Of a stretch of DNA of 64,000 nucleotides, positions 25,849-48,794 are shown piece after piece. The DNA is from Fervidobacterium pennivorans. GTDB lineage: Bacteria; Thermotogota; Thermotogae; Thermotogales; Fervidobacteriaceae. A program made the translations under genes and the position numbers. Below the pieces are notes generated by a model. The model did not search any database. It saw only the letters and a program-made list of their open reading frames with translations, and was not told where the DNA came from. The stretch covers positions 620,001 to 684,000 of the forward strand of contig NZ_CP011393.1 of NCBI RefSeq assembly GCF_001644665.1, in the 5' to 3' direction. The first letter of the stretch is position 1. Every line of letters starts with the position of its first letter.

Positions 25849-27523
<1,675 letters not shown>

Positions 27524-27577
27524 CGGTTTTTTATCATGGGTTAATGATTTTTTTGATTTTTAGGAGGTGGCTAATAA

Positions 27578-28846
27578 TTGAGCGAAGGTATCAGCATGAA
27601 ACAACTTGAAGAAATGACAATGAAAGAATTGTATGAGCTAGCGAGAAAATACGACATTCCAAGATATACTAGTATGAGGAAACAGGATTTAATATTCGAA
27701 ATTCTCGAAGCGAAAGCAAAAGCTGAAGGATACTTTTTTGGAGAAGGTGTACTTGAAATAGCCCCGGATGGCTATGGCTTTTTGAGAAGTTTGGAAACGA
27801 TGCTTTCAGGACCAAAAGACATATATGTTTCACAGTCGCAAATTCGAAAATTTAATCTGAATACCGGAGACATTGTTTCTGGTGTTATCCGTCCTCCAAA
27901 AGAGGGTGAACGTTTCAACGCAATGATTAAGATTGAAGCAATAAATTATAAACCACCAGAATTTGCCAACGAACGTGTCAATTTTGAAAACCTTACTCCA
28001 GATTATCCAAAAGAGCGATATATACTTGAAACCAAACCTGACGTTTTCTCTACAAGGCTTATAGATTTATTTGCTCCAATAGGAAAAGGGCAACGAGGTA
28101 TGATTGTTGCACCACCAAAAGCTGGGAAAACAACAATCCTTAAAGAGATTGCGAATGGAATTGCGGAAAATCATCCGGATACATTCAGAATAGTTTTGCT
28201 AATTGATGAAAGACCGGAAGAGGTAACCGATATTAAAGAATCTGTTGATGCAAAAGTAATTGCCGCTCCCTTTGATATGCCATCTGAAAAGCAAATAAAA
28301 ATAGCTGAATTAACATTGGAAATGTGTAAGCGACTTGTGGAGTACGGCAATCACGTTGTTGTGCTTTTGGATAGTTTGACAAGGCTTGCAAGAGTCTACA
28401 ATGTAACGGTACCACCGAGTGGGAAATTATTAACTGGTGGTGTTGACCCTGCTGCGCTTCATAAACCTAAGCAATTCTTCGGAGCTGCCCGTAACACTCG
28501 TGAGGGTGGAAGTTTGACCATAATAGCAACCGCACTTGTTGAAACCGGTTCAAAAATGGACGAAGTAATATTCGAAGAATTCAAAGGAACAGGTAACATG
28601 GAGCTGGTTTTGTCAAGACAACTTGCAAACAAAAGGATATTCCCAGCAATTAACATTACACTTTCTGGAACTAGAAGAGAGGAACTGCTCATTGAGCAGT
28701 CCAACCTTAAGAAAATCTGGTTATTGAGACGTATGCTTGATTCCATGAGCGAAGAAGAAGGTCTGAAATTACTTCTAAACAAGCTTAAAGATACGAAAAC
28801 AAATGCAGAATTCTTAGCACTCATAGATGCTCAAAAAAATGTTTAG
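27578..28846 (+). CDS. rho: Transcription termination factor Rho (intact copy)
   Basis: 422 residues. The N-terminal Rho-N domain (MKQLEEMTMKELYELARKY) and the cold-shock-like RNA-binding domain (EGVLEIAPDGYGFLRS) precede the RecA-type motor. The motor has Walker A APPKAGKTT, Walker [10 protein letters not shown] and the Q-loop region. It starts at TTG with an AGGAGGTGG site. This is the complete copy; a 5'-truncated second rho gene lies at 60101-60920 and differs by many synonymous changes. Confidence 0.96.
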   Translation: MSEGISMKQLEEMTMKELYELARKYDIPRYTSMRKQDLIFEILEAKAKAEGYFFGEGVLEIAPDGYGFLRSLETMLSGPKDIYVSQSQIRKFNLNTGDIVSGVIRPPKEGERFNAMIKIEAINYKPPEFANERVNFENLTPDYPKERYILETKPDVFSTRLIDLFAPIGKGQRGMIVAPPKAGKTTILKEIANGIAENHPDTFRIVLLIDERPEEVTDIKESVDAKVIAAPFDMPSEKQIKIAELTLEMCKRLVEYGNHVVVLLDSLTRLARVYNVTVPPSGKLLTGGVDPAALHKPKQFFGAARNTREGGSLTIIATALVETGSKMDEVIFEEFKGTGNMELVLSRQLANKRIFPAINITLSGTRREELLIEQSNLKKIWLLRRMLDSMSEEEGLKLLLNKLKDTKTNAEFLALIDAQKNV

Positions 28847-28875
28847 ATTTATTGAGCGGTGTGAGAGGTGCATTT

Positions 28876-30045
28876 ATGTCTTCTGAACGCTCCTACTTAC
28901 TGTGGGAACAACCCAATGGAAGATTTTTGGTTTTTCTAATCACATTTGTGATATTTTTAAGTCATGTGACCTTACTGTTAGCAGTTTCACAGAAGGCAAT
29001 AGAATATTACTCTGCTGCGGAACTTTCCTATAAATCCGGGGACTATTCGACTGCTTTGAAAAATTACGAGTTAGCGCTCTCGACCGATCCTACAATAGAA
29101 GGATACGATTCTCAGATAAAGTTTAAAATGGGTATATCTGCCTATATGGTGGGTGACTACGACAAAGCAAGAAGTTATCTTGCCGGTTACAACAATGAAT
29201 TTGTCAGAGCCCTGCTTGATTCTATAAGCCAGCGAAAAGCTCAGGATGAATGGAAAAAATGGATTTCAACCTACAGACCAACAACTGTAGAAGAAGCTAC
29301 ACAAGTAGCTTCTCAAGTGGAGAAAAAATCTAAAAGTAACTTTTTACCTATTTTTCTCATCTTTGTGATAACATTTGCTGTTCTTTTGATTGCAGAGTTT
29401 AGAATTTACAAAGCTAGAAGGATGGTAATTGAGCTTCCTAAAAAACCTGCCGAAGCCACCTTGCCACCCTCGACCGTTGGTCAAAATGTTTCTGAAAGTT
29501 TTGTAGAGCCTTCTGAAAAATTGTTTTCTGAGGAGTTCGAACTTATACCAAAAGAAGCAAGAATTGTTGATTTTGAACAACTATTGCAAAGTGAAATTGA
29601 TGTTTTCAAAGATATCTTCGAACAAATACCTCAAAAAGAGGAAACAAAGCAAAAACCAACAGAAGCTAAAGGTGCAGAAGAAATTGAAAAGGAACGTCTC
29701 GCTGAAGCAGCCGATAAAGCGGTTGAAAGAGAGAAAATCGTTGAGGAAATACTGGGTGAAACTAAGGAACTAATCGAGGATTTGGGGAAAGAAATCGTTG
29801 AACAACCTCAAGAAGAGGTACCTCAAACAGAACAAATAGAAATAGAAAGCATTGAAGCAGAACTTTTGAGTAAATTAAGGACTCAAAGAGATAGCTGGGC
29901 TGAAGAGAGCCAGCCCTCAGCCGAATTCTACGAGGAGATACAAAAAGATTTCTCAGAATATGACACTTTGGAAAAAATAACAGAAGAAGAAACTAAAATA
30001 TTAGTTGAAAAACTCATTAAACTTAGGCAGGGGGAGAATAATTGA
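28876..30045 (+). CDS. Membrane protein with TPR and acidic tail
   Basis: 389 residues. An N-terminal hydrophobic helix (FLVFLITFVIFLSHVTLLLAV) precedes TPR-like repeats (AIEYYSAAELSYKSGDYSTA, then FKMGISAYMVGDYDKA). A second transmembrane helix (FLPIFLIFVITFAVLLIAEF) follows, and a long Glu/Lys-rich cytoplasmic tail makes up the rest. This gives a periplasmic TPR loop between two helices. The ATG at 28876 is chosen for its GAGAGGTG site. No family function is recognised. It overlaps the next transporter gene by 4 nt, which suggests a functional link. Confidence 0.65.
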   Translation: MSSERSYLLWEQPNGRFLVFLITFVIFLSHVTLLLAVSQKAIEYYSAAELSYKSGDYSTALKNYELALSTDPTIEGYDSQIKFKMGISAYMVGDYDKARSYLAGYNNEFVRALLDSISQRKAQDEWKKWISTYRPTTVEEATQVASQVEKKSKSNFLPIFLIFVITFAVLLIAEFRIYKARRMVIELPKKPAEATLPPSTVGQNVSESFVEPSEKLFSEEFELIPKEARIVDFEQLLQSEIDVFKDIFEQIPQKEETKQKPTEAKGAEEIEKERLAEAADKAVEREKIVEEILGETKELIEDLGKEIVEQPQEEVPQTEQIEIESIEAELLSKLRTQRDSWAEESQPSAEFYEEIQKDFSEYDTLEKITEEETKILVEKLIKLRQGENN

Positions 30046-34172: not shown

Positions 34173-34658
34173 TTATTCTCTACTTCCAAGTTCTCTATCG
34201 AGCATATATAAACCTGTTGGGCTATCTTGGAGCTTTTTAAGTTTTCTAACTATCAGGTCTGTTTGAGCCTCTTCTTCAACCTGCTCTTTTATAAACCATG
34301 CAAGGAACTGTTCGGTAGCATAGTCTTTCTCTTTCCTTGCGATTTCCAGTATATTGTTGATGCTCTTTGTTATGGATTTTTCATGTTCATACGCTGCTTC
34401 AAATGCTTCTAACGGGCTTTTCCAAGTGCTCTTAGGTTTTTCCAAAGCAGGAAGTTCAACCTTTGACCCGCGTTCATAAAGAAAATCATAAATTTTCATT
34501 GCGTGTCCTAATTCTTCCTTGGCTTGCACTTTCATCCATTTTGCAAAACCTGGCAAATCCATAGCATCAAAGTAGGTTGCCATTGAAAGATATAAATATG
34601 CTGAGAAAATTTCCTTACCTACCTGCTCGTTTAAAGCCTTAAGTACCTTTTCATTCAT
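34173..34658 (-). CDS. ftn: Ferritin (non-haem)
   Basis: 161 residues forming the four-helix ferritin fold that stores iron. Ferroxidase ligands are seen in EIFSAYLYLSMA (first Glu), KEELGHAMKIYDF (Glu and His), and the later Glu/Gln positions around YEHEKS and FIKEQVEEEAQ. I start at MNEKVLKALNEQ (34658) with a GGTGGGA site; the longer reading from 34709 reaches into the peroxiredoxin gene. It is downstream of, and probably co-transcribed with, the peroxiredoxin gene, pairing iron storage with peroxide removal. Confidence 0.92.
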   Translation of the reverse strand: MNEKVLKALNEQVGKEIFSAYLYLSMATYFDAMDLPGFAKWMKVQAKEELGHAMKIYDFLYERGSKVELPALEKPKSTWKSPLEAFEAAYEHEKSITKSINNILEIARKEKDYATEQFLAWFIKEQVEEEAQTDLIVRKLKKLQDSPTGLYMLDRELGSRE

Positions 34659-35445: not shown

Positions 35446-37293
35446 GTGAAAAAGGTAGTAGTAGCATTCCTAAGTGTTTTCCTCGCGGTAGTGCTCCTTG
35501 CGTTTGACCCTACGGTCTACGTGGCGGCAACCATAGGTGAACCAGACACACTCGACCCACATCTAGCTTATGACACTGCAAGCGGTGAAGTTATCTACAA
35601 CGTATATGAAAACCTTATTCAGTACAAAGGCAGAAGCGTTAGTGAATTTGAACCAAGGCTTGCAACGGAAGTTCCAACAGTCAAGAACGGACTCATTAAA
35701 GACGGCGGGAAGACATATGTATTTCCAATCAGAAAAGGCGTAAAGTTCCACAATGGCAATCCGCTGACACCAGAAGATGTTGAATACTCATTTGAACGCG
35801 GTCTTCTTTACGACCCAGAAGGCGGTCCAATGTGGATGCTTTGGTATGCAATCTTTGGTGTGCACTCAAGAGATGAGGCTCTCGAAGAGTTTGTTGGAAA
35901 ACCAGTTAGTGAAATATTCGATAAAAGCGGAGAGCCAAAACCAGAATATAAACAAAAACTGATAGACTTTTACAAACAAGTTGTCGATCCAGCAATAGAA
36001 GTCCAGGGAGACAACGTAATTATTAAGCTCAAAAGACCATACGGTCCATTCCTCAACATCATTGCACAAAGTGCAAACTGGGCAGCAATCCTTGACAAAG
36101 AAACATGTATTAAACTTGGCCTTTGGGATGGAAAACCAGATACATGGTGGAAATACAAGGATATGCAAAAAGAACAATCACCACTCTATGCATGGGCAAT
36201 GGGTACTGGACCTTTCAAATTTGTAGAATGGGACAGAAAGCAACAAAAAATCACGCTTGTTGCTAATGAAAATTACTGGAGAGAACCTCCAAAACTTAAG
36301 AAAGTAATAATCTGGGGTATTGACGAATGGTCAACAAGAAAAGCAATGCTTGAGAAAGGTGACGCAGATTCTATAGCTGTTGTTCTTGAATACCTCGACC
36401 AACTCAGAGGTAACAAGGATATTCAGATTATCGAAAACATTCCAACACTCTCTGTGACAGTTGTTGGTTTCAACTGGTCCATCAACCCATCAAGTAAGTA
36501 TGTTGGAAGTGGAAAACTGGACGGTAACGGAATACCTCTTGACTTCTTCAGCGACGTATATGCCAGAAAAGCTGTTGCAGCAGCTATTAACTACGATGCA
36601 CTCATTAGGGATGTTCTAAAAGGTTTCGGTAAGAGAATTCCAACGGCGTTGCCAGAAGGATTACTTGGATTTGACCCAACTCTTCCACTTTACAAATTTA
36701 ATTTGAACGAAGTGCGCGCAAATCTCCAGAAAGCTTGGAAAGGAGAAGCATTGAAGAAAGGAATCAAGTTCAGTGTTGCTTACAACCAGGGTAACGTTGC
36801 AAGACAAAGAATTGCAGAAATGATAAAGATGTACATGGAAATGGCAGCGCCGGGAAAAGTTAAGATAGATGTTCAACCACTTCAGTGGCCAACATTCTTG
36901 GATGCAACGAAACGCGGCGAACTGCCAGTGTTTATACTCGGATGGCTTGCTGACTTCCCAGACCCAGATAACTTCATCTTTACATACTACCACAGCAACG
37001 GTGACTACTCATCAAGACAAGGTGAGAACTTCAGAAAATTCGTAAGCACTCCAAGAAAAGAACTTGGCGGTAAGAGCCTTGACGATCTCATCGAACAAGC
37101 CGCAGCAGAAACAGATCCAGCAGTTAGGGCAAAACTTTACTTGCAGATTCAAAAGTTCGTTATTGACAACTGTATCAGTGTTCCAGTTTACCAACCAGTT
37201 GGTGTTCGTGTCCAAAGAACGTGGGTAAAAGGTTGGTATGACAACCCAATGAGACCTGGTAACGACTTCTACATACTCTACAAAGCAAAATAA
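35446..37293 (+). CDS. ABC transporter solute-binding protein, family 5 (peptide/oligosaccharide type)
   Basis: 615 residues. A signal peptide (VVVAFLSVFLAVVLLAF) precedes the SBP_bac_5 fold: GEPDTLDPHLAYDTASG, KGVKFHNGNPLTPEDVEYSFER, a GTGPFKF segment and VANENYW. In this phylum such proteins bind peptides or oligosaccharides. No permease or ATPase gene is adjacent, and a strong promoter and terminator isolate it as a single-gene unit. It must rely on transporter parts encoded elsewhere. GTG start with a GGGGGG site. Confidence 0.9.
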   Translation: MKKVVVAFLSVFLAVVLLAFDPTVYVAATIGEPDTLDPHLAYDTASGEVIYNVYENLIQYKGRSVSEFEPRLATEVPTVKNGLIKDGGKTYVFPIRKGVKFHNGNPLTPEDVEYSFERGLLYDPEGGPMWMLWYAIFGVHSRDEALEEFVGKPVSEIFDKSGEPKPEYKQKLIDFYKQVVDPAIEVQGDNVIIKLKRPYGPFLNIIAQSANWAAILDKETCIKLGLWDGKPDTWWKYKDMQKEQSPLYAWAMGTGPFKFVEWDRKQQKITLVANENYWREPPKLKKVIIWGIDEWSTRKAMLEKGDADSIAVVLEYLDQLRGNKDIQIIENIPTLSVTVVGFNWSINPSSKYVGSGKLDGNGIPLDFFSDVYARKAVAAAINYDALIRDVLKGFGKRIPTALPEGLLGFDPTLPLYKFNLNEVRANLQKAWKGEALKKGIKFSVAYNQGNVARQRIAEMIKMYMEMAAPGKVKIDVQPLQWPTFLDATKRGELPVFILGWLADFPDPDNFIFTYYHSNGDYSSRQGENFRKFVSTPRKELGGKSLDDLIEQAAAETDPAVRAKLYLQIQKFVIDNCISVPVYQPVGVRVQRTWVKGWYDNPMRPGNDFYILYKAK

Positions 37294-37310: not shown

Positions 37311-37344
37311 AAAGGGTCGCCTTGCAAGGCGACCCTTTCTTTTT
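37311..37344 (+). terminator. Intrinsic terminator of the solute-binding protein gene
   Basis: A 14-bp palindromic stem, AAAGGGTCGCCTTG with its complement, folds with a TTGC loop and is followed by CTTTTT. The group II intron begins immediately after the T-run at 37345. Confidence 0.9.
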
Positions 37345-37736
37345 GTGTGCCCGGCATGAGCGGCAGCTTGGCGGTAAAAGTTTTGCTATGGGCTTGGTAG
37401 TGGGAACGTAAATGTGGCAAGTAAATGGGATGAAAGTGGGCGTTCTTACCCCAGGACGGATACACCTATTGTTAACCTACTCATTGATGTGTAGCTGAAT
37501 CGTCAGAAATCAGCAAAGCTCAGTAGCCGAAAGGTGATGGGAAGCAGAAAACCGAAGAGTGATAGCTTGGAGAAAAAATGGTGGAACCCGGGCATAACCA
37601 AGCAGTGTTAATGCCATCAACGACAGTTCCAGAATCACAAGCCAGTGTGCAGTAGCGCAAATCAACTAAGAAACCGCCGTATACCGCACGGTACGTACGG
37701 TGGTGTGAGAGAACATTGGGTAAATTACCTAATTAC
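37345..37736 (+). mobile_element. ORF-less group II intron, class C (IIC)
   Basis: The stretch starts with GTGTG, the group II 5' consensus GUGYG, exactly after a terminator T-run, which is the known IIC target. Domain V is at about 37673-37704. ACCGCCGTA pairs with TACGGTGGT, then TACC/GGTA closes a GCAC loop, with a 2-nt CG bulge. The catalytic triad is CGC, as usual for IIC. Domain VI follows as ATTGGGTAA-A-TTACCTAAT (37715-37733). The end is near 37733-37736. At about 390 nt there is no room for the reverse transcriptase/maturase of domain IV, so mobility or splicing would need help in trans. The 3' boundary is uncertain by a few nt. Confidence 0.85.
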
Positions 37737-37755
37737 CTAGCTCCTACTCGATTAT

Positions 37756-38682
37756 TTACATTATCTTAGCCCTTTTGCCTTGGTAAGTATCTTTTTCTAT
37801 CAATCTATTTTCTATCAAGTTAACGATCTCGGTTTTTGTCCTTCCCCAATTTCCAAAAAGTGTACCAGTTAAGGGTGGGGCTGCAACAAGTCTGTGAATA
37901 ACTATCCGTGGCGACAGATTCTCGAGGAAAGTAACCGCTCGTTCAACGTATTCTTCAAGGGTTCCTACCTGTAATTTTCCTGACTTAAACATTTCACCAA
38001 AAACAGACCCCTCGACAATATACAGAGAGTGAAGTTTTACACCATCCACTCCAAGTGCGGAAATTATCTTTGCACTTTCTACAACATCTAATGTATTATC
38101 TCCTGGCAAATTCAAAATTACGTGCGATACAACTTCAAATCCATATCTTTTTAGAAGATTCACAGCGTAGATGTATTCTCCCAGGGTATGACCTCTGTTT
38201 ATCTTAACCAGAGTATGATAATTCGCGGTTTGTAAACCTACATCAAAAGAGACTTGAATACCGTGCCCTTTCCTTATATCATCAACCATATTTAAAATTT
38301 CTTCGTTTATGCAGTCTGGTCTTGTTGCGATATCAAGTTGAACAACATCTTCGTCTATTGCCTCTGTATAGGTCTTCCTCAAGACGTCTAATGGGGCGTA
38401 AGTGTTTGTATAGTTTTGAAAATACGCAATGAATTTTCTAATACCCTTTTTTCGATACTTCTCCTTCATTTTCTCTAACTGTTCTTTAACACTTAATCCT
38501 GCAAAAGTGCTAAAACCACTACCCGTTTCATCACAGAAAAAACAACCTGGTCTTCCATTTTCTCTATTTGGACATGTGAAACCTGCATTGAGTGGCAATC
38601 TTTGAACCTTTTCTCCAAATTTTTTCTTTAGTTCAACGCTTAGCTTTCTATACCTGTAACCATCCTCGAGAAAGTCGAAAAT
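37756..38682 (-). CDS. YhcC/TIGR01212-family radical SAM protein, non-standard start
   Basis: An Elp3-like radical SAM protein. The cluster cysteines lie in TCPNRENGRPGCFFCDE, and family features RPDCINEEIL, SFDVGLQTANYHTL and HVILNLPGD are present. The conserved N-terminal lead (YRKLSVELKKKFGEKVQRLPLNAG) lies upstream of the first standard start (TTG 38598). The frame has no ATG/GTG/TTG before a stop. A TGAGGAGGTG site at 38700-38691 is 8 nt before ATT at 38682, which I take as the likely start (308 residues). It overlaps the end of mtaD. The true substrate is unknown. Confidence 0.75.
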   Translation of the reverse strand: MFDFLEDGYRYRKLSVELKKKFGEKVQRLPLNAGFTCPNRENGRPGCFFCDETGSGFSTFAGLSVKEQLEKMKEKYRKKGIRKFIAYFQNYTNTYAPLDVLRKTYTEAIDEDVVQLDIATRPDCINEEILNMVDDIRKGHGIQVSFDVGLQTANYHTLVKINRGHTLGEYIYAVNLLKRYGFEVVSHVILNLPGDNTLDVVESAKIISALGVDGVKLHSLYIVEGSVFGEMFKSGKLQVGTLEEYVERAVTFLENLSPRIVIHRLVAAPPLTGTLFGNWGRTKTEIVNLIENRLIEKDTYQGKRAKIM

Positions 38683-40228: not shown

Positions 40229-41539
40229 TTACGCACCTCCTATCGTTAGTTCTTCACTTATCTTTCCATTCAATAGATAATCGCGAACATACCCAACCAG
40301 ATAAAATGAACCAGTCACAAATTTAACATCTTCATCTGTTTCTTTTAGCAAGTCGACGGCTCTAATATAGTCTGGTTCAAGAATCACGTTTGGATTATAT
40401 CTCTTCGCAATTTCGTAGGTTTCAGCTACTTTTTCGGCCCTTTTTGAAGGTGGCTTTGTGACTATTATTAGATCGAATTTCGGAGCAATTACTTTTAGCA
40501 CACCCTCTTTATCTTTGTCATCTACTATACCAAAAACTGAAGCTCTTCTTTTTCCAGGGAAGTATAAATCTAGATTTTCGGCGAATTTTTCGGCCGCTTG
40601 TGGATTATGCGAACCATCTAATACTACTCCGTTCACCATTTCAAATCTGCCGGGTATAAATGCTTCTTCAAATGCTTTTTTTACAGCTTTTTCATTAATT
40701 CTGTGCGTAACTTCAAAAGCTTTTAATGCCAGTCCAACGTTGTATAGCTGGTGCTTTCCATTCAACCGAACTTTTATACCTTTGATGGTTGTATCACCGT
40801 AGTAATCATAGACATTTTCGTTAAACGAAAACTGAACAGGTTCCACATAGAAATCTTTCCCGTATTCGTATACTTTAGAATTTTTCTGTTTGGCAATTTG
40901 CCTTATTACTTCTAATGCCGAATCTGCCATTAAACCAACGACGACAGGCTTCTTTTCTTTTATGATTCCGGCTTTTTCAAAGGCAATTTGCTCAACAGTA
41001 TTACCGAGAACGTTCGTATGTTCTAAAGAGACGGTGCAAATTACGGAAATTTCTGGTATTATAACGTTCGTTGAATCAAACCTTCCTCCCAATCCAACTT
41101 CAACACTTCCATATTCTGCGTTCTTTTTTTTCGTTATGTAAAAATACATCGCAGTCATATACTCAAAGAAACTCGGAGAGAATTCTTCACCAAGTTTATC
41201 CATCTCTTCCGCATGTTTTTTGACCTCAAATGCTGCTTCCACAAATTCTTCTTGACTTATATTCTGTGTGTTGTAATGGAACCGCTCCAGGATTGTTGAT
41301 AAGTGTGGTGAGTAAAATCCCGTTACATTATGCCCATGGTGATATGTCAAGTATTCAAGAAAAGTTGTAACACTCCCTTTTCCATTTGAACCAGTCACAT
41401 GGAAATATTTAACTCCAGAATGGGGGTTACCCATTCTGGAGAGGAGATTTTCTATTCTGAACAAACCAAGCTTCATTGTGTTGTAAGGGCGTGTGAAGTA
41501 TAGATATTTTAGAGTGTCTAAAAATGTTGCGGAAATCAT
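40229..41539 (-). CDS. folC: Folylpolyglutamate synthase/dihydrofolate synthase
   Basis: 436 residues. This Mur-ligase-fold enzyme adds glutamates to folates. ATP loop HVTGSNGKGSVTTFLEY near residue 50, the omega-type segment GGRFDSTNVI, HTNVLGNTVEQIAFEKAGI and the C-terminal LDGSHNPQAAEKFAENL are all present. Its start overlaps the valS stop by 4 nt. Confidence 0.93.
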   Translation of the reverse strand: MISATFLDTLKYLYFTRPYNTMKLGLFRIENLLSRMGNPHSGVKYFHVTGSNGKGSVTTFLEYLTYHHGHNVTGFYSPHLSTILERFHYNTQNISQEEFVEAAFEVKKHAEEMDKLGEEFSPSFFEYMTAMYFYITKKKNAEYGSVEVGLGGRFDSTNVIIPEISVICTVSLEHTNVLGNTVEQIAFEKAGIIKEKKPVVVGLMADSALEVIRQIAKQKNSKVYEYGKDFYVEPVQFSFNENVYDYYGDTTIKGIKVRLNGKHQLYNVGLALKAFEVTHRINEKAVKKAFEEAFIPGRFEMVNGVVLDGSHNPQAAEKFAENLDLYFPGKRRASVFGIVDDKDKEGVLKVIAPKFDLIIVTKPPSKRAEKVAETYEIAKRYNPNVILEPDYIRAVDLLKETDEDVKFVTGSFYLVGYVRDYLLNGKISEELTIGGA

Positions 41540-44139
41540 CCCTGAGCCTCCAAGTCGGAAATTATCAATTCAATTCTATTTATCTGTTCTAAGAATGTCC
41601 TTTGCTTTTCTTTTGTTTCTTCGACGATATCCTCAGGAGCATTCTTAAGGAAGTTTTCATCTTCCAGTTTCTTTGCAAATTTTTCTAAATCTGCCTTTAG
41701 TTTTTCAACCTTTTTCTTGAGCCTTTGAACTTCCGCATTCACATCGATAAGTTCTCCAAGAGAAACGTAAGCTTCTAAGTTTAATGACACGTAAGCTGTT
41801 GCACAAAGCTTTGGCCTTGATTCTGTAAACTGAATGTTTGAAACATTGCCAAGGAATCTTATATATTCTTGCTCTTCTTCATTTAGCATTCCTTTGATAA
41901 AGAGATCTACTTTTGTTGATTGCGGAACATTTACTTCGGCTCTAACATTTCTGACGCCTCTAATGAGAGCCATTATTTCTTCGAATCTCTTCTCGGCAGT
42001 TTCGTCAACATATTCCTCTGCTACCTTTGGCCAGGGAGCAACAACTATTGATTCACCAGCAGTTGGAAGTTTTGTCCACAATTCCTCCGTCAAGAACGGC
42101 ATAAATGGATGCAACAGTCTTAAGCTCATATCGAGTACGTAAACAAGCACGTTTTGTACAATTTTCTTGTCCTCAGATTTAAGCCTATTCTTTACAGCCT
42201 CGATATACCAGTCGCAGAGTTCATCCCAGAAGAAGTTATAAATTTCTCCCGCCGCTATATTGAAATCATAGTTATCAAGTGCCTCTGTCACTTTTTTAAT
42301 CGTTTTCTGTAGCCTCGAGAGAATCCATTTATCTGACAATTTCAGGTGCTCTTTCTGAATTTCCATCTTTTCAAAGTCATCAAGGTTCATGAATACGAAT
42401 CGAGAGGCGTTCCATATCTTATTAGCAAATTTCTTGTATGTATCAAAGAATCGTACATCAAGTTTTAGGTCCCTTCCTTGTGCGGCAAGGATAGCAAGTG
42501 TAAACCTCATAGGATCGGCACCATATTCATCAATAACTTCGAGCGGATCGATTCCGTTTCCAAGAGACTTGCTCATCTTTCTACCGTATTTATCTCTTAC
42601 AAGTTGGTGTATATACACTTCACTGAACGGTTTTTCCTTCATGAATTCATAGCCCATCATTATCATTCTTGCAACCCAGAAGAAGATAATGTCAAAACCT
42701 GTGACTAAAACATCGGTTGGATAGTATCGTTTCAAGTCTTCTGTCTCCTCAGGCCAGCCCATTGTACTAAATGGCCAAAGTGCTGAGCTGAACCACGTGT
42801 CAAGTACATCTTCGTCTTGTCTTAGATTTGCGCTACCACATTTTTCACAAACCTTCGGTTCATCTTCTGAAACGTTGTAATGTCCACAATCTTGACATTG
42901 CCAGACAGGAATCCTGTGTCCCCACCAAAGTTGTCTGCTTATACACCAATCTCTGATTTCATACATCCAATTTAGATAAACTTTCTTCCATCTTTCAGGA
43001 ATGAACCTGACTTCGTCATTTTCAACAGCTTCTATCGCTCTCTTTGCCAGTGGTTTCATACTCACAAACCATTGGTCCATCAACCTTGGTTCTACAACAG
43101 TGTCACATCTGTAACAATGTCCGACTGAGTGTTTAATCTTTTCAATCTTTACAAGGTATCCCTGCGCTTCCAACTCAGCAATGACCGCCTTCCTTGCTTC
43201 AGATGCGGTTAATCCCTTGAATTTACCACCATTTTCGTTGATAACAATATTTTCGTCGAATATATCAACAAACGGCAAGTTATGCCTTTGACCTATGAGA
43301 TAGTCGTTTGGATCGTGCGCTGGTGTTACCTTCAGTGCACCAGTCCCAAACGATGGGTCAACGTAATTATCGGCTATGATTGGTAACTCTCTTCCAACTA
43401 ACGGCAATATCGCAGTCTTTCCTACGTAATTTTTGTATCTCTCATCTGACGGATGAACTGCAACAGCGGTATCACCAAGCATAGTTTCAGGTCTTGTGGT
43501 AGCTATCACCAAATAATCCTCTTCGCCTTTGATTGGATATTTGATATAGTAAAGAGCTCCCTCTTCCTCGTGATATTCCACTTCCTCATCTGAAAGCACT
43601 GTTCCACATCTGTGACACCAATTAACTATGTACTTACCTTTATAGATTAAACCCTTCTTATATAACTCTACAAAAACCTTTCTGACTGCCTTGGACAAAC
43701 CTTCATCTAGCGTGAAACGTTCACGAGTCCAGTCAACGGACGCACCAATTGACATTATTTGCTTTTTTATCTCTTCTCTGTATTTATTTGCCCAATCCCA
43801 TACAATCCTTAAGAACTCTTCTCGAGTAAAGTCTCTCCTACTTTTGCCCTGAGTAGCAATGTATTTCTCAACAGCTGTTTGCGTTGCAATACCTGCGTGG
43901 TCTTCACCAGGAAGCCATAGTACGTCGAAACCTTGCATGCGCTTGTAACGACTTAAAATATCTTGAATAGTGATATTAAGGGCATGTCCCATGTGAATTC
44001 TGCCCGTGATATTTGGCGGTGGAATAACAATTGAGTACTTTGGACCACTCCCCTTTGGCGTAAAATAACCTTTTTCAAGCCACTTTTTGTACCACTTCAT
44101 CTCAATATTTGTTGGGTCATATCGCGTTCCTATCTCCAT
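41536..44139 (-). CDS. valS: Valyl-tRNA synthetase
   Basis: 867 residues. Class I synthetase with HIGH-type PNITGRIHMGHALN, the KMSKS loop RKMSKSLGNGIDPLEV, two Zn-type CysXXCys pairs (CHRC, CQDC/CEKC), an editing domain (ATTRPETMLGDTAVAV) and a C-terminal coiled coil. The start at 44139 (MEIGTRYDP) has a GGAGGTG site; the 44160 reading does not. It overlaps the upstream degenerate GGDEF gene by 23 nt. Confidence 0.96.
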   Translation of the reverse strand: MEIGTRYDPTNIEMKWYKKWLEKGYFTPKGSGPKYSIVIPPPNITGRIHMGHALNITIQDILSRYKRMQGFDVLWLPGEDHAGIATQTAVEKYIATQGKSRRDFTREEFLRIVWDWANKYREEIKKQIMSIGASVDWTRERFTLDEGLSKAVRKVFVELYKKGLIYKGKYIVNWCHRCGTVLSDEEVEYHEEEGALYYIKYPIKGEEDYLVIATTRPETMLGDTAVAVHPSDERYKNYVGKTAILPLVGRELPIIADNYVDPSFGTGALKVTPAHDPNDYLIGQRHNLPFVDIFDENIVINENGGKFKGLTASEARKAVIAELEAQGYLVKIEKIKHSVGHCYRCDTVVEPRLMDQWFVSMKPLAKRAIEAVENDEVRFIPERWKKVYLNWMYEIRDWCISRQLWWGHRIPVWQCQDCGHYNVSEDEPKVCEKCGSANLRQDEDVLDTWFSSALWPFSTMGWPEETEDLKRYYPTDVLVTGFDIIFFWVARMIMMGYEFMKEKPFSEVYIHQLVRDKYGRKMSKSLGNGIDPLEVIDEYGADPMRFTLAILAAQGRDLKLDVRFFDTYKKFANKIWNASRFVFMNLDDFEKMEIQKEHLKLSDKWILSRLQKTIKKVTEALDNYDFNIAAGEIYNFFWDELCDWYIEAVKNRLKSEDKKIVQNVLVYVLDMSLRLLHPFMPFLTEELWTKLPTAGESIVVAPWPKVAEEYVDETAEKRFEEIMALIRGVRNVRAEVNVPQSTKVDLFIKGMLNEEEQEYIRFLGNVSNIQFTESRPKLCATAYVSLNLEAYVSLGELIDVNAEVQRLKKKVEKLKADLEKFAKKLEDENFLKNAPEDIVEETKEKQRTFLEQINRIELIISDLEAQG

Positions 44140-44548
44140 CCTTGACACCTCCGGTAGCACTTATTTCTATGTCACAATCTATCTGTATTCTCTCTGAACC
44201 GTAGGTTAACAGAAGGTAGTGCAAAGAATCCTTTATTCTATTAGAAATCTTCATGACCTCATTTTCTCCTACCCCGTGGAGAACTATACAAAAATCGTTC
44301 CCTTCAAGTTTGCAAACAAAATCCTTGGGTATCCTCACACTGTGTTTTATAACAGAAGAAACTCTAGAGAGCACAAAATTTCTTAAATCTTCGGTGCTAG
44401 CTTGAAATTTCAGTGTGATGTGCAAAACATAAAATTTTTCATTGCTTTGCCTAAGTTCTTCAAATACGTTTTTTACGAACTCCTGATTTGGAAGTCTCGT
44501 AATTGGATCAACCCATTCGCCTGTTAATAACTTGTGAATACCCTTCAT
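44117..44548 (-). CDS. Degenerate GGDEF-domain protein
   Basis: 143 residues. DPITRLPNQEFVKNVFEEL matches the D(P/A)LTGLxNR start of GGDEF domains. At the catalytic position it reads LEGNDFCIVLHG instead of GGDEF, so cyclic di-GMP synthesis is unlikely. It could bind GTP or a nucleotide as a sensor. The start (MKGIHKLL) follows a GGGAGG site. It leads the valS-folC-rsfS-mtaD operon and overlaps valS. Confidence 0.6.
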   Translation of the reverse strand: MKGIHKLLTGEWVDPITRLPNQEFVKNVFEELRQSNEKFYVLHITLKFQASTEDLRNFVLSRVSSVIKHSVRIPKDFVCKLEGNDFCIVLHGVGENEVMKISNRIKDSLHYLLLTYGSERIQIDCDIEISATGGVKDGDRNAI

Positions 44549-44578
44549 CCGAATACCTCCCACTTTCCTGTTTAAATT

Positions 44579-44627
44579 ATTTTACCACATTTGTCATATT
44601 GTGAGAATATGGCATGTGTGATAGAAT
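44579..44627. promoter_or_regulatory. Overlapping divergent promoters
   Basis: Minus strand: TTCTCA (44607-44602), 17 nt, TAAAAT (44584-44579) for the valS operon. Plus strand: TTGTGA (44599-44604), 17 nt, TAGAAT (44622-44627) for the MFS gene. The two -35 elements overlap, so use of one may exclude the other. Confidence 0.4.
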
Positions 44628-44715
44628 AAGTAACGAAATTTAAATTGTTCGCATGACAAACTTTTAAATGACTAAAAGTGATAAACAAGAACCTAGAAAG
44701 GAGTGTAAAAATTTT

Positions 44716-45831
44716 ATGGGGTTTAATTTAATGTCGCTACTTTCAATATTTTCACACTTCTTTTTAGACTTTTACGTTTCTTTCTTCAATCCCTTGGGAC
44801 CGTTCATTATTCAGAAATTTCCAATAGAAATTCGCATACTCACCTCTTTTTTGGCATTATCATCAGCGATAGCTAGCCTTTTGCAGATATTCTTTGGATT
44901 CTTTTTTGACAGAGTCAAATACACCAAGAGTTTGCTCTTTACAATGTATGTTTTGGAAGCGATAGGTGTATCACTGATAGGTATTTCCACAAACTTTTGG
45001 ATGTTCATATCCGCGGTTTTTGTTGTTAGAATTGCAAACTCTGCCTTTCATCCTTTAGGTGCTTCTATGGCTGGCGAGGTTGGTGGTCGGAGTGTTGCAT
45101 TCTTCTCTATTGCAGGAACAATTGGTGCTGCACTCGGACCTGTTTTTATATCCATTTATGTATCACATTTTCCGATAGAATCACTTTGGGTTGTATCACT
45201 ACCGGCATTTATTTTAGCTAGTTTCTTACTCAGACTTAATATTCCAAACAGGACTGTGCACAACTCAAAATTCGACTTAAGAGAGGTTGCAAAACTATTG
45301 CCCATACTATTAGTTGTCACGGTTCGAAGTTTTCTCATGTCTGTTGTCCACGCTTATACACCTATATACGTCACAAAAATACGCTCTTATTCGATTTCTC
45401 TCTCAGGTTTGTTAATAACAAGTGGAATGATTGCAGGCGTCTTTGCAAACTACCTCGGAGTTATTTTAATGGAGAAAATAGGTGCGAAGAAACAAGATTT
45501 AGCAGCATTTATAGGTATGGGGTTAGCGATATGCTGGTTAATATCCAGTAAAAGTGTTTTACCAATTTTCATTTCCTTTGTCCTTTTTGACTTTTTTGGA
45601 TTTTTGCTCATGTCAGCAAATGTTGTTCAAGCACAGAAAATATTACCGAATAGGAAAGCCTTAGCATCATCTGTTGCTATGGGGTTTGCATGGTCATTGG
45701 GGGATTTCATAGCAACTGGTTATAATTCTGTATTCGGCAACGATGTGGTTTTATCATTAGGGCTTGCTATACCCGTAGCTTTTGTAGCGTCGATATATTT
45801 CGGGATCGTCCAAAAATTTGATACAAAATAA
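44716..45831 (+). CDS. MFS transporter
   Basis: About 371 residues with 12 predicted membrane segments. The motif between helices 2 and 3 reads GFFFDRVKYTKS, and the helix-4/5 region reads RIANSAFHPLGASMAG, a pattern seen in fosmidomycin-resistance-like (Fsr) exporters. The substrate is unknown. The ATG at 44716 follows AAAGGAG; the ATG at 44668 has no ribosome site and would add 16 polar residues. Confidence 0.8.
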   Translation: MGFNLMSLLSIFSHFFLDFYVSFFNPLGPFIIQKFPIEIRILTSFLALSSAIASLLQIFFGFFFDRVKYTKSLLFTMYVLEAIGVSLIGISTNFWMFISAVFVVRIANSAFHPLGASMAGEVGGRSVAFFSIAGTIGAALGPVFISIYVSHFPIESLWVVSLPAFILASFLLRLNIPNRTVHNSKFDLREVAKLLPILLVVTVRSFLMSVVHAYTPIYVTKIRSYSISLSGLLITSGMIAGVFANYLGVILMEKIGAKKQDLAAFIGMGLAICWLISSKSVLPIFISFVLFDFFGFLLMSANVVQAQKILPNRKALASSVAMGFAWSLGDFIATGYNSVFGNDVVLSLGLAIPVAFVASIYFGIVQKFDTK

Positions 45832-45891
45832 TCTGTGTGTTAAAATTGGGTAAGAATGACTTAGACACGATAAAGCAGGAGGAAGATGGTT

Positions 45892-47262
45892 ATGACTGAT
45901 AAAGACTTTTACAAAAAAAGTGAAAAAGTTGAGCAACTTTACACAGTTTACATAGAAAGGTACGCTTACGGAGGGTACGGTATTGGAAAACTGCCCGGTG
46001 GTAAATTGGTTTTTGTTGAGGGGACATATCCGGGTGATTTGGCTGAAATAGAAGTCGTGCAAGAAAAATCTGATGTGGCTTTTGGAAGGTTGAAAACTTT
46101 ACTTGAAAAGTCAGAGTTTCGAAGAACACCTAGGTGTAAATATTACGGTATTTGTGGCGGATGTCAGATGATGGACGTCAAGTACGAAAAGCAACTTGAA
46201 TTAAAGACCCTGGTTGTAAAGGAACAGTTGAAACGGATAGGAAAGATTGATGTCGATGTAAATCCAACTATTCCAAGTGATTTAGAATTCGGATACAGGA
46301 ATAAAATGGAATTTGCGTTTTTTTACAGCAATACTGAAGGAGTTATACTGGGATTGAAAATGAGAAATAGCAACAAGGTAATAAATATAAAGGAATGTCC
46401 TATTTCGCCTTCTTCATTTAACAAGGTGCTCGAAGTCGCGCCTGAAATTGTTGAATTGAGCAAAGCTAAGATTTACAATCCGAGAACGGGTTCTGGTATG
46501 CTTAAGCATTTGGTTATGAGGTATTCCCATTCAAATAATCAAACTATGGCAATATTCGTAACAAAAACCGAAAGGTTTGATGAGGCAAAATTTATACGTG
46601 CTGAACTACTTAGAAGAGTTCCACAAGTAAACTCTATTATCCATGTTATGAACTCTTCCGACAGCGTAGTTTTAAGAGGACCGTATAAAACACTTTATGG
46701 TTCAGGCGTTTTGGAAGTGGAGATGGATTATGAAAAATTCCAAATTCCACCAACCGCTTTCTTCCAAAATAATTACCATATAGCAGCTAAGATGATAGAA
46801 TACGTTACTAAGCAACTTGACCTAAAAGGAAACGAAAAGGTCTTAGATTTATACGCAGGCGTAGGAACGTTTACAATGAGGTTGGCGATGCTTTCGAAAT
46901 ATGTTGTCGCTGTTGAAAGTTCGCATATAGCGGTCAAAGCAGGGAGAGCAAACGCCAATATAAACAACTTGAGAAATGTAAAATATGAAGAAACAGATGT
47001 TGAGGAATTCATTCGTTCTTACGATGATAAAGCAAATGTAATCGTGCTCGACCCTCCAAGAGGAGGCGCAGGAAAGTCCGTATGTGAACATATAATAAGA
47101 GTTAAACCCGAGAAAATCGCATATATTTCTTGCGATCCATCAACACTTGCAAGGGACTTGGCCGTTTTGAAAGAACACTACAACATACTAGCCGTTCAAC
47201 CATTTGACATGTTTCCTCAAACGTATCATGTTGAGACGGTGGTATTGATGTCAAGGGTATAA
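45892..47262 (+). CDS. rlmD: 23S rRNA (uracil-5)-methyltransferase, RlmD/TrmA family
   Basis: 456 residues. A TRAM-like N-terminal domain, a four-Cys Fe-S site (CKYYGICGGCQ and neighbours), the SAM loop LDLYAGVGTFTMRLA, the motif LDPPRGGAGKSVCEH and the catalytic ISCDPSTLARDL are clear. It methylates U in 23S rRNA or tRNA; which position cannot be told. The second ATG is preferred (GGAGG, 8 nt). Its last 14 codons are matched by a diverged copy at 49849-49893. Confidence 0.9.
   Translation: MTDKDFYKKSEKVEQLYTVYIERYAYGGYGIGKLPGGKLVFVEGTYPGDLAEIEVVQEKSDVAFGRLKTLLEKSEFRRTPRCKYYGICGGCQMMDVKYEKQLELKTLVVKEQLKRIGKIDVDVNPTIPSDLEFGYRNKMEFAFFYSNTEGVILGLKMRNSNKVINIKECPISPSSFNKVLEVAPEIVELSKAKIYNPRTGSGMLKHLVMRYSHSNNQTMAIFVTKTERFDEAKFIRAELLRRVPQVNSIIHVMNSSDSVVLRGPYKTLYGSGVLEVEMDYEKFQIPPTAFFQNNYHIAAKMIEYVTKQLDLKGNEKVLDLYAGVGTFTMRLAMLSKYVVAVESSHIAVKAGRANANINNLRNVKYEETDVEEFIRSYDDKANVIVLDPPRGGAGKSVCEHIIRVKPEKIAYISCDPSTLARDLAVLKEHYNILAVQPFDMFPQTYHVETVVLMSRV
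47222..47262 (+). repeat. 3' end of rlmD, shared with 49849-49893 (possible attachment site)
   Basis: GTTGAGACGGTGGT, then TTGATGTC and GGGTA, are identical in order to the segment at 49855-49887. All but one of the differences are synonymous. The pair flanks the recombinase-bearing segment. Confidence 0.5.
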
Positions 47263-47292
47263 AAATAAGGTGTATTTAAAACATTGATAAAT

Positions 47293-47376
47293 CAAGGGTT
47301 TCCAAGTGTAGTTAGTTTTTCTAGATTATTTTCTAGAGCTGATAATGCTGGGAAACCCTTATTTTTAGTGGTTGAG
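47293..47376 (+). terminator. Terminator-like inverted repeat after rlmD
   Basis: CAAGGGTTTCC and GGAAACCCTT form a 10-bp stem with a long loop that contains a second inverted repeat (TCTAGA...TCTAGA), and TATTTTT follows. The rest of the 320-nt gap to 47583 is AT-rich with no gene seen. Confidence 0.55.
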
Positions 47377-47582
47377 GAAACATATCAAAGACTAAAATTG
47401 CCATAGGGTTGAGTTGACAGATTAGATGGATTGGTAGGGTTGTGGAGATAGGATAGATGTGATAAGATATTTTAAATAGCCTACATATCATAAATAATGT
47501 TTTGCTATATGTTGAATAGTCAGTGTGTACGTTTATAAAATTTTAAGGCTTTATTTTATATGAATTGGAAGTGGGGATCAGC

Positions 47583-47843
47583 ATGTTTAAAAAAATAAAT
47601 AATTTCTTGAATTGTTTAATTGGTTCATTTATCGGTGTGTTTATTGCTCATAGTATATATACATATTTTGATTTTAGAAATAATCCAGGTTTATATGAGA
47701 TTCAATCGACACCTTGGCACATGAGTATTCAAGTATATGGGTGGGGTACTGCTGTAATAATATTTATTGCTATTATTCTTAAGTTATTAATAAAAAAGAA
47801 AATGAAAGAAATTAATAATACTTTTTATGTTGATTGTTTATAA
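47583..47843 (+). CDS. Small two-helix membrane protein
   Basis: 86 residues with two hydrophobic helices (IGSFIGVFIAHSIYTYF and GTAVIIFIAIILKLLI) and a basic segment after the second. The sequence is more AT-rich than the core genes and looks like Firmicutes DNA. A GGGG-containing site precedes the ATG at 47583. It lies 24 nt ahead of the recombinase and is probably cargo of the same element. No function is recognised. Confidence 0.5.
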   Translation: MFKKINNFLNCLIGSFIGVFIAHSIYTYFDFRNNPGLYEIQSTPWHMSIQVYGWGTAVIIFIAIILKLLIKKKMKEINNTFYVDCL

Positions 47844-47867
47844 AAAATATTAATTTGGAGGTAGAAC

Positions 47868-48794
47868 ATGTCTAAAAACCCAAAAGTTCATTTTATACCA
47901 CCTAAACCTCCAAAACGAGAGAAAAGAGTAGGTATTTACTGCCGGGTCAGTAGTAATAGTTTTGAACAATTGAAAAGCCTTACTGCTCAAGTATCTGCCC
48001 TTACAAGGGTAACTGCGGCCACGCCTCAATGGTTACTTGTTGATGTTTATATGGATATTGCCTCTGGGAAAACCGGTTCTTCTCGCAAAGAGTTCTCTCG
48101 TATGCTTGAAGATTGCAACTCCCATAATCTAGATATAATACTCACTAAGAGTATTAGCCGATTTGGTAGAGATACAGTGGATACACTTGAAGCATTAAAT
48201 CAACTAAAAACGTTAGGAGTTCGTGTAATATTTGAGCAAGAAGATCTAGATACTGCAAATACAGATAGTGACCTTATGATATCTATCATCGAAGCTATTG
48301 CACAGGCGGAAAATGAATCTAGAAGTGATAATATAAAATGGGGTATTAAACAAAGAGCGGCACAAGGCACTTCAAAGCTGTATAACCGTAAATGTTATGG
48401 CTATAAAAATGATGTTGATGGCAGTCTTATTATAGATGATGAAGAGGCTAAAAATGTACAGCTAATATTTGATTTTTACCTTCAAGGCAAAAGTATTATA
48501 GGAATAATTGAAGAGTTAGAAAAGCTTGGTATTAAATCCCCAACTGGAAAAGATAAGTGGAGTAAAAGGACAATTGATGTAATGTTAAGTAATGAAAAAT
48601 ATATAGGAATAGTTCGACTATTAAATTCAGGGAAGTACGAAGCTCATTATATTTCTGAAGATAATAATCCTTCTATTATAAGTGATGAACAGTTTAAGGC
48701 AGTACAGATTGAGAAGGCAAATAGAAGTAATGTTATAAAGGGTGAAGATGGCAACCAGAGAAAAAATAAAAAGTACAGTTCTAAGAGAAAATAG
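47868..48794 (+). CDS. Serine recombinase (resolvase/invertase-type N-terminus)
   Basis: 308 residues. Resolvase domain with the nucleophile in GIYCRVSSNS, and YMDIASGKTGSSRKEF and SISRFGRDTVDTLEAL as in site-specific serine recombinases. A Recombinase domain (AAQGTSKLYNRKCYGYK, SIIGIIEELEKLGIKSPTG, MLSNEKYIG) follows. The protein ends soon after this domain, so it lacks the coiled-coil C-terminus of large integrases and may be truncated or of a short class. GGAGG site. It is the likely driver of the 47263-49887 insertion. Confidence 0.85.
   Translation: MSKNPKVHFIPPKPPKREKRVGIYCRVSSNSFEQLKSLTAQVSALTRVTAATPQWLLVDVYMDIASGKTGSSRKEFSRMLEDCNSHNLDIILTKSISRFGRDTVDTLEALNQLKTLGVRVIFEQEDLDTANTDSDLMISIIEAIAQAENESRSDNIKWGIKQRAAQGTSKLYNRKCYGYKNDVDGSLIIDDEEAKNVQLIFDFYLQGKSIIGIIEELEKLGIKSPTGKDKWSKRTIDVMLSNEKYIGIVRLLNSGKYEAHYISEDNNPSIISDEQFKAVQIEKANRSNVIKGEDGNQRKNKKYSSKRK

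What the first reader, a model, noticed from the sequence alone, without database searches (positions are those of the whole stretch)
37311..37736. ORF-less group IIC intron placed exactly after a terminator
The 390-nt element begins with GTGTG right after the T-run of the solute-binding protein terminator, the hallmark target of class C introns. It has a domain V with CGC triad and 2-nt bulge, and a domain VI. It lacks any reverse transcriptase, so it is either a dying copy or a minimal ribozyme mobilised in trans. As an intact thermophile-derived IIC ribozyme of this size it would be of structural interest.
Basis: partly seen in the sequence, partly recalled or inferred. Interest (0 to 1): 0.66.

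Follow-up and report, generated by a model that had tools for sequence, protein, structure and literature searches.

The report
Fossil mobile intron behind a terminator
This is the decayed remains of a self-splicing mobile intron that once jumped in behind a gene's stop signal in a heat-loving bacterium; it has lost the part thought to recognise its target and its copying enzyme, and its relatives found in the genus are decaying too.

Summary
The element is real. It is a group IIC (terminator-targeting) intron, + strand, about 37345-37752 (408 nt), inserted in the T-run of the solute-binding-protein gene's terminator. It has a good domain V (CGC triad, CG bulge) and a domain VI. It is not an intact minimal ribozyme. 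Against full-length relatives in the same phylum it lacks about 157 nt of domain I, the stretch holding the inferred EBS1 loop. The reverse transcriptase (RT) is reduced to about 35 codons with stops.

The genome (one 2.06-Mb contig) has no RT hit, nor do the other eight genus genomes held. It carries three more relics: B (302 nt) and C (about 190 nt), both right behind terminator hairpins, and F, very decayed. The sister species G070 has A at the same place with a mutated triad, and a clean empty site at B. Only A, its orthologue and B share the same domain I deletion. So a copy already lacking that half either moved or was copied by gene conversion.

Verdict: an orphaned, decaying ORF-less IIC intron family. 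It is a known kind, unusual for bacteria because no helper RT remains.

The parts
37311..37344 (+). Intrinsic terminator of the solute-binding-protein gene (12-bp hairpin 37311-37338, tail CTTTTT); the 5' exon / target site of the intron
   Evidence: terminator scan; sequence; hairpins are seen by eye at the same place in relatives that lack the intron
37345..37408 (+). Intron 5' end GTGTG and first part of domain I, up to GTGGGAAC
   Evidence: 73-82% identity to the 5' ends of phylum relatives; model R2 finds such 5' ends in G000 x3, G070, G072 and G083
37407..37409 (+). Junction of the deletion of about 157 nt of domain I (inferred EBS1-loop half), identical in copy B and in the G070 orthologue
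   Evidence: alignments; distance from start to the TTACC motif 98-99 nt here against 243-255 in full-length relatives that have the motif
37409..37472 (+). Remaining 3' strand of domain I (..GGATGAAAG..GTTCTTACCCC..)
   Evidence: alignment with ORF-less relatives
37473..37542 (+). RF01998-like block (end of D1 to D3)
   Evidence: cmscan 27.4 bits, below the gathering score
37530..37625 (+). Remnant of the RT N-terminus in domain IV, with two stops in frame; the rest of the RT is deleted
   Evidence: 34-residue tblastn alignment at 44% identity to the RT in L048, E 2.1, so weak alone; supported by the DNA alignments
37647..37658 (+). Short GTGCAGTAGCGC cap of domain IV left after RT loss (GCGCAATAGCGC in copy B)
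   Evidence: sequence
37674..37703 (+). Domain V, CGC triad and CG bulge intact in this copy
   Evidence: RF00029; pair counts
37704..37752 (+). Domain VI and intron 3' end ..CTACTCGAT
   Evidence: RF00029; 10 of 17 helix-2 pairs change on both sides across 8 copies

Best explanation
The element is a degenerate, non-autonomous copy of an ORF-less group IIC intron. Proposed history: an RT-bearing IIC intron entered the ancestry of this genus; an ORF-less derivative (most of the RT lost from domain IV) spread to several terminators using an RT in trans; the RT source was then lost; the copies have since decayed by point mutation and deletion. In the lineage of copies A and B the inferred EBS1-bearing half of domain I was also lost. 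Today the copy sits behind a strong terminator, is probably little transcribed, and is predicted not to splice or move. Shown here: identity, boundaries, precise insertion (empty site at B), shared deletions, absence of an RT hit. Inferred: order of events, past trans-mobilisation, loss of activity.
For: RF00029 and RF01998 matches. Own-genome copies B and C and F. B has a clean empty site in G070. A is present at the same place in G070 and absent between the same two genes in the eight other family genomes aligned there. Domain I deletion against relatives, including the loop motif taken as EBS1, absent from A. RVT_1: 0 of 9 genus genomes, 23 of 103 in the phylum, with control genomes ringing; IIC RT protein: 1 of 20 family genomes, none in the genus. 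G070 copy: triad CGC to CAC and a further broken domain V pair. E in G072 decays differently.
Against: Domain V and VI of copy A are still well paired and its triad is intact. A and its G070 orthologue differ at only 22 of 300 columns, while the 150-nt flanks of B differ by 15-22% between the same genomes, so some constraint, or local recombination, at A is not excluded. Loss of splicing is inferred, not tested.
Confidence: 0.86

Rival explanations
1. Intact minimal IIC ribozyme: the 408-nt intron still self-splices (for example by hydrolysis) without EBS1, or with a replacement exon-binding site.
For: Domain V triad, bulge and domain VI intact in A. IIC introns recognise the terminator stem as well as IBS elements (passages of PMC7161350).
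Against: Half of domain I missing; the orthologue's triad is mutated; MFE no better than shuffles, z 0.02; copy B has lost a further 110 nt.
Confidence: 0.06
2. A sub-question inside the best explanation: copies A and B share the domain I deletion by gene conversion. Two longer ORF-less copies were inserted, one was deleted, and the deletion was copied to the other by recombination.
For: A and B share the domain I junction and the domain IV cap. Recombination is active in this lineage: blocks of 98.6-100% identity to G070 alternate with blocks of 79-95% around A.
Against: No direct evidence of a conversion tract; it would have to cover much of the intron and stop at both intron ends.
Confidence: 0.4
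3. The relic has a present-day host function, for example as extra transcription-termination hairpins between convergent genes.
For: A and C lie between convergent genes. Domain VI of C is a perfect 8-bp hairpin with T-rich tails on both strands. The domain VI helix is kept across the 8 aligned copies, 93.4% of cells paired.
Against: In A the scan calls only the old terminator on the + strand. Copies from genomes with RTs are among the 8 rows, so pair counts reflect past splicing too.
Confidence: 0.07
4. Not an intron; chance resemblance.
For: Both Rfam scores lie under the gathering cut-offs.
Against: Homologous copies with matching ends at other terminators, a clean empty site, and full-length RT-bearing relatives.
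Confidence: 0.01

Closest known systems
Bacterial class C / group IIC introns (B. halodurans B.h.I1, O. iheyensis, Ta.it.I1)
   Same: GUGYG 5' end and CGC triad in domain V (recalled); insertion right behind intrinsic terminators (PMC4424553 and PMC7161350, passages)
   Different: Lacks about 157 nt of domain I and nearly all of the RT
ORF-less TeI3 introns of Thermosynechococcus elongatus (PMC2882425, passages read)
   Same: One ORF deletion with a remnant N-terminus, then spread of the short form by RTs in trans
   Different: There 28 introns, six of which could encode active RTs; here four relics, no RT hit, truncated ribozymes
C.te.I1 of Clostridium tetani (PMC4424553, passages read)
   Same: ORF-less intron in a genome without a related RT gene
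   Different: C.te.I1 self-splices robustly; copy A lacks the inferred EBS1 half of domain I
ORF-less IIC copies in family f10 of the same phylum (L023, L024, L037, L017, L028)
   Same: Similar 5' end and domain V; four of the five keep an RT remnant
   Different: Domain I complete; RTs are present in G049, G051 and G047, but not in G037

Membership tests
Group IIC intron | 5' end GUGYG.. and 3' end AY | tested here: met
   GTGTG..GAT
Group IIC intron | Insertion right after an intrinsic terminator | tested here: met
   A; B and C: hairpins read in the sequences (B's short T-run is not called by the scan)
Group IIC intron | Domain V with CGC triad and 2-nt bulge | tested here: met
   not met in the G070 orthologue
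Group IIC intron | Complete domain I with EBS1 | tested here: not met
   a relic of a member, not a functional member
Group IIC intron | Class C RT in domain IV, or in trans | tested here: not met
Group IIC intron | Self-splicing or RT-dependent splicing | not testable with these tools
   needs RNA
ORF-less group II intron | No functional RT ORF but complete ribozyme domains | tested here: not met
   RT gone, but domain I incomplete too

The most novel reading that the evidence does not exclude
A miniature group IIC element that had already lost its RT and the EBS1 half of domain I was itself mobilised in trans into a second terminator (copy B): a MITE-like group II element that relies on terminator recognition by a helper RT instead of EBS1-IBS1 pairing.
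Probability: 0.2. Interest if true: 0.65.

Novelty: new member of a known kind. Interest (0 to 1): 0.3.

Why it matters
The passages read in PMC4424553 state that bacterial ORF-less group II introns nearly always share a genome with a related RT, and name one exception. Here a genus has several ORF-less IIC relics and no RT hit in nine genomes, which shows the end stage of an intron family after helper loss. The two sites sharing a domain I deletion raise a testable question about how little ribozyme a IIC intron needs to be moved.

Tried and rejected
Rfam at gathering level gave nothing. Search for the D1-deleted form elsewhere by a gap pattern: 7 stretches in genome contigs and 65 in viral contigs; of these 72 loci, none had both a IIC-like start and a domain V-like motif. 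The test is narrow and misses other deletion lengths. Plasmids: 100 records match, none covering 80% of the query; the 20 rows listed all match only the domain V-VI end (query 328-408); the other 80 were not seen. Phages: no match. EBS1-IBS1 complementarity in 10 distinct relatives that matched a strict loop motif: observed 32 against 28.6 shuffled, p 0.09, not significant; starts not matching the motif were left out, so the EBS1 assignment rests mainly on position and recalled IIC anatomy. Tree of 14 copies on 179 columns: A with its orthologue plus B at support 85, C with D/F at 64, E nearer f10 at 63; one row (G045) lacked its 3' half and signal is low. Site counts put B outside A and its orthologue (29 against 12 and 9 of 300 columns), yet B is absent from G070; not resolved, since local recombination is strong. 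Papers: three searches naming hosts listed nothing on group II introns in Fervidobacterium or Thermotogae beyond passing co-mentions; only the listings were read for these (10 of 142 listed). Two more searches gave the papers whose passages were read.

Full report
Observation. The solute-binding-protein gene ends at 37293; its terminator hairpin is 37311-37338, followed by CTTTTT and then GTGTGCCCGGCATG at 37345. Rfam finds a domain V-VI match at 37672-37752 (37.3 bits, gathering 40, E 1.1e-5) and a D1D4-1 match at 37473-37542 (27.4 bits, gathering 35, E 0.0068); at gathering level the whole window has 0 matches. The 3' end is about 37752: the RF00029 match and the homology to copy B run to CTACTC(G/T)AT. 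The minus-strand neighbouring gene is 37756-38598.

Copies. The window lies in a genome of one 2,061,852-base contig. Copy B, G000:C1 about 34334-34635 (-), 302 nt, 86-88% identical by block, lacks a further 110 nt (window 37500-37609). Copy C, G000:C1 about 1525599-1525790 (+), keeps the first 62 nt and the domain IV tail, V and VI; it follows the hairpin GATGGCCTGGTTTTCAGGCCATC and a T-run behind a lemA-like gene (name recalled). Copy F, about G000:C1 153.53-153.90 kb (-), and its orthologue D in G070 (flanks collinear, 77% over 3 kb) are very decayed and lie between a cmr6-like gene (name recalled) and a repeat array that looks like CRISPR. E, G072:C164 3755-4027 (-), 273 nt, keeps part of the domain I stretch that A and B lack, so it decayed on its own path. 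Models R1 (domain V-VI) and R2 (5' end), built from 8 copies each including A, its orthologue, B and C, hit 3 of 20 and 4 of 20 family genomes; of these hits only those in G072 and G083 were not in the training rows.

Insertion. At B the sister species G070 has an empty site..CCTGAGCCTCTTG-TTTTTAAA.. against ..CTTGTTT|B|TTTAAA... A is in G070 at the same place, 92% identical, with collinear flanks. In the eight other family genomes aligned at this locus (six of the same genus, two of another genus of the family) no intron lies between the two genes.

Truncation. [quoted passage not shown] in A, its orthologue and B it is 98-99; many other starts gave no motif hit and are not counted. Alignment with five ORF-less relatives places the gap after GTGGGAAC. 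The missing stretch contains the motif GAGTTTG-Cnnnn-CAAAACGAAGTCC, whose four loop bases vary between copies; by position and recalled IIC anatomy this is the EBS1 loop; a complementarity test was only suggestive (p 0.09, n 10). The RT is left as about 35 codons with two stops (weak alone).

RT. RVT_1: 0 of 1 in the own genome, 0 of 9 in the genus (two of these 81% and 60% complete) and 23 of 103 in the phylum. A IIC RT protein finds 1 of 20 family genomes, G084, outside the genus.

Decay. Among 300 gap-free columns: A = orthologue, B different 29; A = B, orthologue different 12; orthologue = B, A different 9; all different 1. The orthologue's domain V has CCACCAUA for CCGCCGUA, hitting the triad G. 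Domain V and VI pairs across 8 copies: 93.8% of cells paired, 10 of 30 pairs with changes on both sides, all in domain VI; this shows past selection on the RNA, including copies from genomes that have RTs, not present activity. The MFE of A is as expected from shuffles, z 0.02.

Two sites, one deletion. A and B share the domain I junction and the domain IV cap, but have unrelated flanks. Either the truncated form moved, or gene conversion copied the deletion, or the deletion recurred. C begins its deletion at about the same base (GGGGAAC) but ends it in domain IV, so a weak spot for deletion is possible. Blocks of 98.6-100% identity between G000 and G070 near A, beside blocks of 79-95%, show much recombination. 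I hold gene conversion more likely than mobilisation, because known IIC splicing and reverse splicing use EBS1 (recalled; exon recognition passages in PMC7161350).

Comparison. PMC4424553 (passages): bacterial ORF-less introns are rare and nearly always live with a related RT; C.te.I1 is named as the sole exception. PMC2882425 (passages): T. elongatus ORF-less introns share one ORF deletion and spread with RTs in trans. PMC8919778 (passages): C-type introns sit right behind terminators and are rarely transcribed. The present case fits these as a later stage, after RT loss.

Noticed in passing
L004:1552-1574 (G000:C1 about 1525756-1525778): Domain VI of relic C is a perfect 8-bp hairpin with T-rich tails on both strands between convergent genes; it may serve as a bidirectional terminator.
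   Followed up: partly
window 27000-29500 and 40500-48000: Blocks of 98.6-100% identity to G070 alternate with blocks of 79-95%: recent recombination between the two species.
   Followed up: partly
L006 and L220: Relics F and D lie between a cmr6-like gene and a repeat array with about 70-nt period that looks like CRISPR.
   Followed up: no
G079:C3:103327-103791 and G082:C5:33324-33788: RT domains inside open frames of 1375 and 1419 codons in sister genera of the family; a IIC RT query does not hit them.
   Followed up: no
L023, L024, L037 (G049, G051): ORF-less IIC copies of equal length (564-565 nt to domain V) at different sites, full domain I, with RTs in the same genomes: looks like a living trans-mobilised family.
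   Followed up: partly
G083:C44:396-458: 5' part of a IIC intron, cut off within about 200 nt, in another genus of the family.
   Followed up: no
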